From the IMG/VR virus record IMGVR_UViG_3300025141_008753, positions 1-64,000 of that record: DNA of 64,000 bases. One strand, 5' to 3'. The stretch's first letter is position 1. Each line of letters opens with the position of its first letter. The translations under genes were made by a program, and so were the position numbers. Source of the stretch: a virus. The notes below the pieces were generated by a model. The model was not told the DNA's origin. It was given only the letters and a program-made list of their open reading frames with translations, and ran no database searches. This document shows, one piece after another, positions 36,158-59,095 of the stretch.

Positions 36158-36468
36158 TGGCAAGAAATTATATCCCTAAGCGCTCATATTTTTCTGAAAC
36201 GCGTGTTCAGAAGATAGCGAAGGAGGTTATGAAAGATTGCCAGCAGGACAGGCAAAAAGCGTTAGAGATGTTTCAGTATTTCTTGAAAATGGTCGAAAAT
36301 AATCCAGAGGATGACAAGGCGAAAGCTGAAATGTCTAAAGCCTTGGATTTAGCTCAAAGCTCAAATGATAAGGTAGTTAAAGTACTGGACATGATGCTGA
36401 AGATGACCCAACATGAAATGAAAGATAAAAAACCAGACGAATTCTCGTTTGAACAACTCCAAAAATGA
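36157..36468 (+). CDS. Small helical protein, possible packaging or adaptor factor
   Basis: 103 aa, all helical: RVQKIAKEVMKDCQQDRQKALEMFQYFLKMV and AKAEMSKALDLAQSSNDKVVKVLDMMLKM. The arrangement recalls small terminase subunits but also adaptor proteins. It overlaps the start of the Clp-type ATPase gene by four bases. Identification is weak. Confidence 0.4.
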   Translation: MARNYIPKRSYFSETRVQKIAKEVMKDCQQDRQKALEMFQYFLKMVENNPEDDKAKAEMSKALDLAQSSNDKVVKVLDMMLKMTQHEMKDKKPDEFSFEQLQK

Positions 36469-37682
36469 ACGACCCATACATACTTTATAGCCCCGTTATC
36501 GACAACTTCATTAAGATTAAAAAGTTGTCTGAAAAGGAATGCCTAGTTATTGTAGAGGAGCTTAGAGGAAAAGTTAAAAGCCCTAAGTTCAAAATAACTA
36601 ATTACGTTAACTACATGATTAGTTTGCTGGTTGATAAGCATGAGACTTTAATTAAGGGAAACGGGGAAGGAACTCACGAAGCATTGTTTGAATGTGTATG
36701 TGAAGTTTATCCTGGATTTTCTATAGAGCTTTTAAACAAAACTCTTAATGATGGATTTGAGGACGAATCTGAGGTTGGCGTATCCGTTTCAGGTCTAACT
36801 CTTCCGCAGGTGGAGAAGATTGAAAGGAAAATTAAAAGTTTTTTAGTCGGTCAGGATTCTGCGGTATCAGAGGTTGTGAAGTGCATTAAATTAATGTCCT
36901 CAGGATTGGAAGGCTCCACTTCAATGTTTTTCATCGGACCTACAGGAGTAGGAAAGACGGAATTAGGCAAGTTACTAGCCAAGTGTTACTTAGGCACGGA
37001 TAAGAGGTTACTGAAGGTAAACTGTGCCGAGTACTCAGGCTCACACGAGTACGCTAAGCTCATCGGAAGCCCTCCAGGGTATATCGGTCATAATGAAAAG
37101 GGAATCCTTACTGAGTGCGCTAAGAAGTCGTCTCAATGGATTCTACTGTTTGATGAGATAGAGAAGGCATCTGACAAATTACATAATCTCTTACTAGGCT
37201 TATTAGACGAGGGCAAAATTACCGATTCACATGGCACGGTTCTGGATTTCACCAATACTATTATCTTATTCACCAGTAACGTAGGTGTTAAAGATGTCGT
37301 AAATAGAAAACAAATGGGATTTGGCGCTGAGAAGATGTCATATGCAGATTCCCGGGCTGAGGTGGAAGAAGCGTTCAAGGATACATTTTCTCCGGAATTT
37401 ATTAATAGACTAGACTCTATTGTGTACTTCAACACCCTAAATAAAGATGACGCTAAGCATATTGCTCGTCTTAATCTGAAACATCTCCCTATACGAGTTA
37501 CGAAGAAGCTCGTGGATTGGGTTGTCGAAGAATCCTTTTCGGAGGACTTTGGGGCGAGGAACATCAAGCGTTTTATTAAAAATAATATAACCTTACAGGT
37601 AGCTGATAAGATACTAGAGGGCAATGCAAACACAGTATTTTCTCCGGTATTTTCTAAAAATAAATTTCAAGGATTAAAATGA
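36465..37682 (+). CDS. AAA+ ATPase resembling the ClpA/ClpB D2 domain
   Basis: 405 aa. A ~115-residue N-terminal part is followed by one AAA+ module: Walker A GPTGVGKT (residue ~158), VNCAEYSGSHEYAKLIGSPPGYIGH (Clp pore-loop region), Walker B ILLFDEIEKA, sensor 1 LFTSNVG, and the arginine-finger segment FSPEFINRLDSIVYF. A C-terminal ClpB D2-small domain (FGARNIKRFIKNNI) follows. It has no ClpP-binding IGF/L loop that I can see, so it may be a disaggregase-like machine. Confidence 0.85.
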   Translation: MNDPYILYSPVIDNFIKIKKLSEKECLVIVEELRGKVKSPKFKITNYVNYMISLLVDKHETLIKGNGEGTHEALFECVCEVYPGFSIELLNKTLNDGFEDESEVGVSVSGLTLPQVEKIERKIKSFLVGQDSAVSEVVKCIKLMSSGLEGSTSMFFIGPTGVGKTELGKLLAKCYLGTDKRLLKVNCAEYSGSHEYAKLIGSPPGYIGHNEKGILTECAKKSSQWILLFDEIEKASDKLHNLLLGLLDEGKITDSHGTVLDFTNTIILFTSNVGVKDVVNRKQMGFGAEKMSYADSRAEVEEAFKDTFSPEFINRLDSIVYFNTLNKDDAKHIARLNLKHLPIRVTKKLVDWVVEESFSEDFGARNIKRFIKNNITLQVADKILEGNANTVFSPVFSKNKFQGLK

Positions 37683-46367: not shown

Positions 46368-46895
46368 ATGAAAACCCCATGGATAATAACTAATATGAAA
46401 CAAGGAACAAAAGCAAATAAATCAGGATTGAAACTTGAATCCCAAGTTGAGAATCTTATCATCAAGAACTTGAAAGTAGACTCCGAGTATGCGAGTCGCT
46501 ATAAGTCAAGAGAGGATAATGAGGATATTCTACTTAAGAATGTGCCATACACAAACATATATGGCAATACCAAATGTCGCTCTGAGTTTGTCCTCTGCTA
46601 TAAGTCAAGAAAGGTAAGGATAGAATGTAAAACCCAACATTCTGCTGGGAGTGTCGATGAAAAACTACCTTACCTTTACATGAACTTTACACAAACAATA
46701 CCAGAATCCGAAGCAATCATTGTGATTGAAGGAAATGGATTTAAGCAAGGGGCAAAAGAGTGGTTGAAAACGAATTGTAAAGGAACAAAGGTAAAAGTGA
46801 TGGACTTATCTGAGTTTCAGCGATACATCATTAGTGGTATGCCGAAAATCGTTCCCTCAATACAGAATCGTATAAAAAACTGGTTGAGCGGTTAG
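46368..46895 (+). CDS. PD-(D/E)XK nuclease family protein
   Basis: 175 aa. RSEFVLCYKSRKVRIECKTQHSAGSVDEKLPYLYMNF gives the E-C-K catalytic pair in the PDDEXK_7-like pattern (ECKxQxxxGSVDEK), and AIIVIEGNGFKQGAKEWLK follows. Two copies of the dispersed GCTATAAGTCAA motif fall inside this gene. Such nucleases can be homing or DNA-processing enzymes. Confidence 0.75.
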   Translation: MKTPWIITNMKQGTKANKSGLKLESQVENLIIKNLKVDSEYASRYKSREDNEDILLKNVPYTNIYGNTKCRSEFVLCYKSRKVRIECKTQHSAGSVDEKLPYLYMNFTQTIPESEAIIVIEGNGFKQGAKEWLKTNCKGTKVKVMDLSEFQRYIISGMPKIVPSIQNRIKNWLSG

Positions 46896-58146: not shown

Positions 58147-58224
58147 TGGTGGAGGTGGTGGGAATCGAACCCACGTCCTGACAAGAGCCATGATAGGTTT
58201 ACCAGTCGAACACCAATCACCCCC
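58147..58224 (-). ncRNA. tmRNA-like tRNA-like domain (78 nt, no mRNA-like region)
   Basis: 5' GGGGGTGATT...TTCGACTGG and 3' GGACGTGGGTTCGATTCCC...CACCTCCACCA match the ends of bacterial tmRNA (GGGG-TGATT--GGATTCGAC and GGACG-GGGTTC). The acceptor stem GGGGGTG/CACCTCC pairs over 7 bp, the T arm GTGGG/CCCAC is perfect, and CCA is encoded. No normal anticodon stem forms; a CCT/AGG plus CA/TG arm remains where tmRNA has P2. The ORF and pseudoknots are missing. Alternative: a decayed tRNA. Confidence 0.6.
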
Positions 58225-58380
58225 AAAAATGAGCCAAAGAGGATTTCTTTCCATGCTCGCTCGCACCACCCTTCCTTTTCAAGGCGTGGATGGGCGCTCT
58301 GGCATTCCAACCTTCATGGAACTTGCTCTGGAATTCTCCAACCTAGGATGTCCAATGGGTGAGGTTGCCTCTTTGACTCG
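58225..58380 (-). ncRNA. Structured leader upstream of the tmRNA-like domain
   Basis: ~156 nt between the predicted start of the promoter at 58387 and the tRNA-like 5' end. It contains hairpins TTCCA/TGGAA and CCTT/AAGG within a larger CCATCC/GGGTGG stem. GGTTGGA...CCAGAGC appears twice. No good ORF. It may be removed by RNase P or be part of a longer RNA. Confidence 0.4.
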
Positions 58381-58386
58381 TTTACC

Positions 58387-58415
58387 ATTATACACGAGCG
58401 CACCCGTATTGTCAA
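58387..58415 (-). promoter_or_regulatory. Perfect consensus promoter for the tmRNA-like RNA
   Basis: Minus TTGACA (plus 58410-58415), spacer 17, TATAAT (plus 58387-58392). Confidence 0.92.
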
Positions 58416-58494: not shown

Positions 58495-58523
58495 ATTATA
58501 CTACATTTTACCTCCGTTGTCAA
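58495..58523 (-). promoter_or_regulatory. Perfect consensus leftward promoter
   Basis: Minus TTGACA (plus 58518-58523), spacer 17, TATAAT (plus 58495-58500). The terminator at 58418-58466 follows without an ORF, so the product would be a ~70-nt RNA. Confidence 0.9.
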
Positions 58524-58612
58524 GAGAAAAATAGTCTTTCTTTTTTTCAGAGTGTCATTATCGACTCTCAGAGGTGAAAAACTGCCGGAAAAATCTCCCC
58601 TGTTGTGCGTAT

Positions 58613-58641
58613 ATTATACCATTTTCCTAGCATATTGTCAA
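58613..58641 (-). promoter_or_regulatory. Perfect consensus leftward promoter at the array edge
   Basis: Minus TTGACA (plus 58636-58641), spacer ATATGCTAGGAAAATGG, TATAAT (plus 58613-58618). The spacer is identical in the copies at 58924 and 58989. Confidence 0.92.
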
Positions 58642-58674: not shown

Positions 58675-58703
58675 TTGACAAAATGAGCCTAAACGTGTAA
58701 AAT
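58675..58703 (+). promoter_or_regulatory. Rightward promoter-like TTGACA-N17-TAAAAT, copy 1
   Basis: TTGACA 58675-58680, spacer 17, TAAAAT 58698-58703. The -10 is inside repeat unit 2. No rightward gene follows. Confidence 0.5.
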
Positions 58704-58923
58704 TCTCCGCTCAATCATGTAAAACTTTCCGCTCAATCATGTAAAATTCTCCGCTCCCAATCATGTAAAACTTTCCGCTCAATCATGTAAAATTCTCCGC
58801 TCAATCATGTAAAACTTTCCGCTCAATCATGTAAAATTCTCCGCTCCCAATCATGTAAAACTTTCCGCTCGAACGTGTAAAATTCTCCGCTCGAACGTGT
58901 AAAATTCTCCGCTCTAAGTCCTT

Positions 58924-59017: not shown

Positions 59018-59095
59018 GGGGAAAACGTGTAAAACTTTCCGCTCGAACGTGTAAAATTCTCCGCTCGAACGTGTAAAATTTTCCGCTTTTTTTAC

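What the first reader, a model, noticed from the sequence alone, without database searches (positions are those of the whole stretch)
58147..58392. Phage gene for a tmRNA-like tRNA domain without the mRNA-like region
The 78-nt minus-strand element combines tmRNA-type 5' (GGGGGTGATT-TTCGAC) and 3' (GGACG-GGGTTCGA...CACCTCCACCA) ends, a perfect T arm, a 7-bp acceptor stem and encoded CCA, but has no usable anticodon arm and only ~20 nt where the tag ORF and pseudoknots should be. A perfect sigma70 promoter at 58387 and a ~156-nt structured leader precede it. It might be charged with alanine and interfere with trans-translation, sequester SmpB/AlaRS, or be a decayed tmRNA.
Basis: partly seen in the sequence, partly recalled or inferred. 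Interest (0 to 1): 0.85.

Follow-up and report, generated by a model that had tools for sequence, protein, structure and literature searches.

The report
Phage tmRNA reduced to tRNA domain
This phage carries a tiny gene for just the tRNA half of tmRNA, the RNA bacteria use to rescue stuck ribosomes; over a hundred related versions turned up in other phages, all keeping the features needed to be loaded with alanine, which suggests a widespread but almost unstudied way for phages to interfere with ribosome rescue.

Summary
Window 58224-58147 (minus strand) matches Rfam tmRNA end to end (67.6 bits, E 3e-24) with about 310 model positions deleted; ARAGORN finds no tRNA or tmRNA there. It is not a decayed tmRNA. 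Pattern scans of viral contigs gave 114 distinct such "mini-tmRNAs" in about 160 contigs, including 12 related to the window phage; cultured Streptomyces phages and one Stenotrophomonas phage carry it unannotated.

In all 114, acceptor pairs 1:72 and 2:71 are G:C, 3:70 is G:U and base 73 is A (the alanine identity set). The search pattern did not ask for this; ordinary tRNAs in the same contigs show G3:U70 in 10 of 206. Acceptor pairs 4-6, the T stem and a short capped helix 2 covary strongly. A scan of 84,980 bacterial and archaeal genomes found one; no examined phage encodes SmpB.

The kind is known from a single phage, mycobacteriophage DS6A; a TLD-only molecule is reported to inhibit E. 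coli tmRNA. Best explanation: an alanine-charged decoy that uses host SmpB/EF-Tu and blocks or diverts host trans-translation. Sequence, structure and selection are shown; function is inferred. What is new: the class is widespread and its alanylation signature invariant.

The parts
58147..58224 (-). mini-tmRNA: complete tRNA-like domain without tag ORF or pseudoknots, 78 nt with encoded CCA
   Evidence: RF00023 67.6 bits; family model R1 68.9 bits; identical copy in L004
58218..58224 (-). acceptor stem 5' strand GGGGGTG, with G1, G2 and G3 of the alanine identity set
   Evidence: pairs 7/7 with 58151-58157; 3:70 is G:U in 114 of 114 family members
58205..58217 (-). D-like region ATTGGTGTTCGAC with the GG and UUCGAC blocks typical of tmRNA
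   Evidence: GG present in 112 of 114 family members though not part of the search pattern
58179..58204 (-). short helix 2 (UGGUAA 58204-58199 with UUGUCA 58184-58179) capped by CC(UAUCAU)GG, standing where the tag ORF and pseudoknots should be
   Evidence: family-wide covariation of this helix; the window copy is one of the weaker ones
58158..58178 (-). GGAC followed by the T arm GTGGG-TTCGATT-CCCAC
   Evidence: matches the tmRNA model
58147..58157 (-). acceptor 3' strand CACCTCC (U70), discriminator A73, encoded CCA
   Evidence: A73 in 114 of 114, CCA encoded in 29 of 114 family members
58387..58415 (-). sigma-70 promoter TTGACA-17-TATAAT upstream of the gene
   Evidence: 12 of 12 match; kept in L004
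58225..58380 (-). 5' leader, probably removed by processing; not conserved in its 3' half
   Evidence: fold of leader plus element z -1.5; replaced in L004
58138..58377 (-). possible precursor stem: GTCAAAG (58377-58371) with CTTTGAC (58144-58138), flanking the gene
   Evidence: direct reading; in L004 the 5' arm reads GTCGGAG and still pairs through G:U; weak, two sequences only

Best explanation
The element is a phage-encoded mini-tmRNA: the tRNA-like domain of tmRNA with the tag ORF and pseudoknots removed and helix 2 closed by a small hairpin. Transcribed from its own promoter and trimmed by host tRNA-processing enzymes, it is charged with alanine by host AlaRS and bound by host EF-Tu and SmpB. 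It competes with host tmRNA for SmpB and for stalled ribosomes. If it enters the A site it can take the nascent chain but offers no message to resume on. The net effect is inhibition or diversion of host trans-translation, so that unfinished proteins are not tagged. Shown here: sequence, structure, selection on the alanine identity set, recurrence in phages. Inferred: transcription, charging, SmpB binding, effect on infection.
For: Full-ends match to RF00023 with the middle missing. 114 distinct phage relatives with invariant G1:C72, G2:C71, G3:U70 and A73, none of them demanded by the search, while acceptor pairs 4-6 covary freely; ordinary tRNAs of the same contigs have G3:U70 in 10 of 206. 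Strong covariation of helix 2 and the T stem. Found in phages and in only one of 84,980 prokaryote genomes scanned with the first pattern. No SmpB in 35 phage records or in G000, so host SmpB would be used. A TLD-only molecule like that of phage DS6A is reported to inhibit E. coli tmRNA (PMC4131195; PMC11915505).
Against: No expression, charging or binding data. The published inhibition is reported to work whether or not the RNA can be charged, which does not by itself explain the invariant alanine identity set. One phage (G003) carries both a mini and a full-length tmRNA, which a simple SmpB sponge would also inhibit. The window copy's family fold is less stable than its predicted minimum-energy fold (-20.4 against -27.1 kcal/mol).
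Confidence: 0.6

Rival explanations
1. Tag-less ribosome rescue: the charged mini-tmRNA with SmpB accepts the nascent chain on ribosomes stalled on cut messages and lets it go by drop-off and peptidyl-tRNA hydrolysis, freeing ribosomes for the phage without destroying the protein. It is a helper, not an inhibitor.
For: Invariant alanine identity set, which a pure SmpB sponge would not need; mitochondrial and plastid tmRNAs without tag frames are retained (PMC11915505).
Against: No known release step on such a complex; a TLD-only RNA is reported to inhibit in E. coli.
Confidence: 0.17
2. Decoy substrate for host RNases or defence systems that recognise tmRNA or SmpB-bound RNA, such as systems with SmpB-like domains (CoCoNuTs), sparing host tmRNA or blunting the defence.
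For: SmpB-like domains in CoCoNuT systems are predicted to bind tmRNA (PMC11090510).
Against: Would not require strict alanine identity; no association with such systems was looked for or seen.
Confidence: 0.08
3. Non-ribosomal alanine donor: the charged RNA feeds an aminoacyl-tRNA-dependent transferase and does not act on ribosomes.
For: Alanine identity conserved with no decoding part.
Against: Keeps tmRNA-specific sequence (GG, UUCGAC, GGAC, helix 2) beyond what charging needs; no linked transferase in the neighbour clusters examined.
Confidence: 0.04
4. Decayed or misassembled tmRNA, or an integration-site fragment of host ssrA; no function.
For: Large internal deletions of tmRNA genes are known in some older MAGs (PMC11915505); the Alone3 copy is mutated.
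Against: Compensatory changes in helix 2, recurrence in many phages and samples, identical copy in L004, both ends of the gene present, complete phage genomes of isolates also carry it.
Confidence: 0.03

Closest known systems
TLD-only tmRNA of mycobacteriophage DS6A (tmRNA Website 11587; Mao et al. 2009, as cited in PMC4131195 and PMC11915505)
   Same: [quoted passage not shown] such a molecule is reported to inhibit E. coli tmRNA.
   Different: Function not tested here.
tmRNA (ssrA), Rfam RF00023
   Same: 5' and 3' ends, acceptor stem with G3:U70, T arm, UUCGAC and GGAC blocks, start of helix 2.
   Different: No tag reading frame, no pseudoknots; 78 nt instead of about 350-400.
CDS-less organellar tmRNAs (Mallomonadaceae plastids, about 65 bp; mitochondrial tmRNA without tag frame; PMC11915505)
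   Same: tRNA-like domain kept, tag frame lost.
   Different: Reduced organelle genes; here a phage gene with a covarying capped helix in many phages.
Full-length and permuted phage tmRNAs (Phabba, Kumao, crAss-like cr50_1, S-CAM1)
   Same: Phage-borne tmRNA genes, some of them next to tRNA genes.
   Different: They keep a tag region and score at most 38 bits with the mini model.

Membership tests
TLD-only phage tmRNA (DS6A type) | Homologous to the tmRNA tRNA-like domain | tested here: met
   RF00023 67.6 bits, both ends
TLD-only phage tmRNA (DS6A type) | No tag reading frame or pseudoknots | tested here: met
   26 nt between TTCGAC and GGAC
TLD-only phage tmRNA (DS6A type) | Encoded by a phage | tested here: met
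   Virus record with tail sheath, DNA polymerase, RNR, helicase
TLD-only phage tmRNA (DS6A type) | Inhibits host tmRNA | not testable with these tools
   Needs expression and a tagging assay
Functional tmRNA (trans-translation RNA) | Alanine identity set G1:C72, G3:U70, A73 | tested here: met
Functional tmRNA (trans-translation RNA) | Tag reading frame with resume codon | tested here: not met
   No space for it; 310 model positions deleted
Functional tmRNA (trans-translation RNA) | SmpB binding | not testable with these tools
   Needs a binding assay
tRNA (tRNA-Ala) | Anticodon arm of 5 bp with 7-nt loop | tested here: not met
   ARAGORN finds no tRNA here; the R1 family helix has another shape
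Permuted tmRNA (RF04321) | 3' half of tmRNA precedes the 5' half in the gene | tested here: not met
   Order is 5' then 3' within 78 nt; no RF04321 match in the window

The most novel reading that the evidence does not exclude
The charged mini-tmRNA is not a mere SmpB sponge but an active acceptor: with SmpB it enters stalled ribosomes, takes the nascent chain onto its alanine and, having no message, either releases it untagged or is followed by further copies, adding alanines without a template. This would be a phage-made counterpart of RqcH-type alanine tailing, and would explain why alanine identity is invariant although charging is reported to be dispensable for inhibition.
Probability: 0.12. 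Interest if true: 0.9.

Novelty: new member of a known kind. Interest (0 to 1): 0.64.

Why it matters
A TLD-only phage tmRNA was, in the papers held, a curiosity of one mycobacteriophage. Here it is a recurrent, structurally conserved RNA class in many tailed phages, including cultured phages of Streptomyces, and the annotation of those phages overlooks it. Its invariant alanine signature makes a clear prediction: charging is needed in nature. That makes the question whether phages attack or redirect ribosome rescue testable with phages that can be grown in the laboratory.

Tried and rejected
Integration-site fragment of host ssrA: rejected, because the 5' end is present too. Permuted tmRNA with the rest in the leader: rejected; the leader is replaced in L004. 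Structured leader as part of the function: not supported. Decay or assembly artefact: rejected by covariation and recurrence. Bacterial origin: the scan of 84,980 genomes gave 25 hits, nearly all chance TTCGAC sites just upstream of the 3' end of ordinary full-length tmRNAs; only L048 in a Mycobacterium MAG is a mini, and its neighbours match no PHROG or Pfam family, so whether it is phage DNA is open. A shared neighbour protein such as SmpB or a transferase: none found; one set of loci has the RNA between head protease and major capsid genes, others elsewhere, 25 of 162 within 500 bases of a tRNA. INPHARED search with window DNA: no match. The crAss-like, Chryseobacterium, PA_L9 and S-CAM1 hits were permuted tmRNAs, not minis. 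DS6A itself and the Mao et al. text were not available.

Full report
What is there. On the minus strand of a 67.7-kb virus record, 58224-58147 reads GGGGGTGATTGGTGTTCGACTGGTAAACCTATCATGGCTCTTGTCAGGACGTGGGTTCGATTCCCACCACCTCCACCA. Rfam's tmRNA model matches it from first to last position with 310 positions missing (67.6 bits, E 3.4e-24). ARAGORN sees neither a tRNA nor a tmRNA there. The record is a contractile-tailed phage: tail sheath, family A-like DNA polymerase, RNR, DnaB-like helicase, SbcC-like protein. The stretches tried have no nucleotide match in INPHARED.

Outside the pattern, 114 distinct sequences have a complete 7-bp acceptor stem. In all 114, pairs 1:72 and 2:71 are G:C, pair 3:70 is G:U and base 73 is A, while pairs 4-6 take all Watson-Crick types. 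The acceptor register was chosen for best pairing, which favours pairing but not the identity of 3:70. Ordinary tRNAs in the same contigs have G3:U70 in 10 of 206 cases, 8 of them tRNA-Ala. G3:U70 with A73 is the established alanine identity signal (general knowledge).

Architecture. In place of the tag ORF and pseudoknots there are 18-43 nt (median 30). In most members they form a helix 2 of about 4-9 bp, an A-rich asymmetric internal loop, and a short hairpin, often CCG-CAUG-CGG or CCG-CACG-CGG. Pairs 1-4 of helix 2 form in 108, 107, 98 and 105 of 110 sequences against 46-56 after shuffling. On a covariance-model alignment, 18 of 21 pairs show changes on both sides and the covariation score is 0.659, against 0.135 shuffled and at most 0.10 when slid (that alignment includes nine weak tRNA matches and leans towards the model). 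The model separates minis (53-90 bits) from full-length or permuted tmRNAs (at most 38) and tRNAs (at most 26). The window copy scores 68.9; its helix 2 is UGGUAA/UUGUCA with a 2-bp cap. It is one of the weaker helices, and the bare RNA has a lower-energy alternative fold (-27.1 against -20.4 kcal/mol).

Relatives of the window phage. Twelve contigs share flanking proteins with it, directly or through each other. All carry a mini with encoded CCA and mostly differing helix 2 sequences, and a tmRNA search of their records found no full-length gene. The closest, L004, has an identical element while about 130 bases of the leader next to it are replaced. The perfect promoter at 58415-58387 is kept. 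So the gene, not the leader, is what is preserved.

Distribution. Cultured phages with an unannotated mini are Streptomyces phages LuckySocke, GiJojo, pSt2308, BRock and Shaeky, and Stenotrophomonas virus Jojan60; GiJojo was seen by BLAST only, and in Streptomyces phage Alone3 the copy is mutated (60 bits). The 162 loci fall into 34 groups by shared flanking proteins within 4 kb (one group of 105), which is a rough count. In the genome collection 25 hits reduce to one mini, in a Mycobacterium MAG. None of 35 phage records, nor G000, encodes SmpB. Each searched record holds one mini; one of them, G003, also has a full-length tmRNA.

How it most likely works. Invariant alanine identity, the conserved tmRNA D-loop and T-arm blocks, a short helix 2 and the lack of any message point to an RNA that host AlaRS charges and host EF-Tu and SmpB accept, but that cannot finish trans-translation. 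It would therefore act as a decoy or dead-end acceptor. Two papers report that a TLD-only tmRNA occurs in mycobacteriophage DS6A and that such a molecule inhibits E. coli tmRNA, according to one of them whether or not it can be charged (PMC4131195; PMC11915505; both citing Mao et al. 2009, not readable here). The invariant identity set suggests that in nature charging does matter, so a step beyond SmpB titration, such as ribosome entry and peptide transfer, is plausible. All functional steps are inference.

Known or new. It is a new member of a known kind: TLD-only phage tmRNA. It is not a functional tmRNA in the defining sense, since the tag ORF was tested and is absent. What appears new, within the literature searched, is that the kind is widespread, has its own conserved capped helix, and is under strict constraint for alanylation.

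Noticed in passing
window 58495-58641 (minus strand): Two more perfect TTGACA-17-TATAAT promoters at 58641 and 58523, each followed by about 80-100 bases without a long ORF before the next promoter; the second unit ends in a GGGGTT...AACCCC-TTTTTT hairpin. They may be tandem small-RNA genes.
   Followed up: partly
window 58691-58914 and 59024-59087: Arrays of a 22-bp direct repeat (TGTAAAATTCTCCGCTCAATCA and variants) just upstream of the small-RNA promoters; function unknown.
   Followed up: no
L017, L066, L069, L150 (5' flank of the mini-tmRNA): CACC(C)TTC directly abuts the GGGGGTG start, so leader and acceptor 5' strand could form a competing hairpin; absent in the window.
   Followed up: no
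G003 77588-77979 and 46486-46567 (L211, L068): A 123.6-kb phage record carries both a full-length tmRNA (94 bits, among tRNA genes) and a mini-tmRNA.
   Followed up: partly
L023 2509-3013: A mini-tmRNA lies right after a GOLLD giant RNA on the same strand.
   Followed up: no
L012 5916-6012; L017 6292-6379: Pistol ribozymes about 2-3 kb from the mini-tmRNA in two relatives of the window phage.
   Followed up: no
L055, L059 (crAss-like phages cr50_1, cr10_1): Permuted full-length tmRNA genes with RAGATH-22 or RAGATH-9 RNAs about 0.5-1.2 kb upstream.
   Followed up: no
window 36465-37682 (+): A 405-aa AAA+ unfoldase-like protein with AAA_2 and ClpB_D2-small domains (PHROG ATP-dependent protease); tmRNA tags normally feed Clp proteases, but no link was tested.
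   Followed up: no
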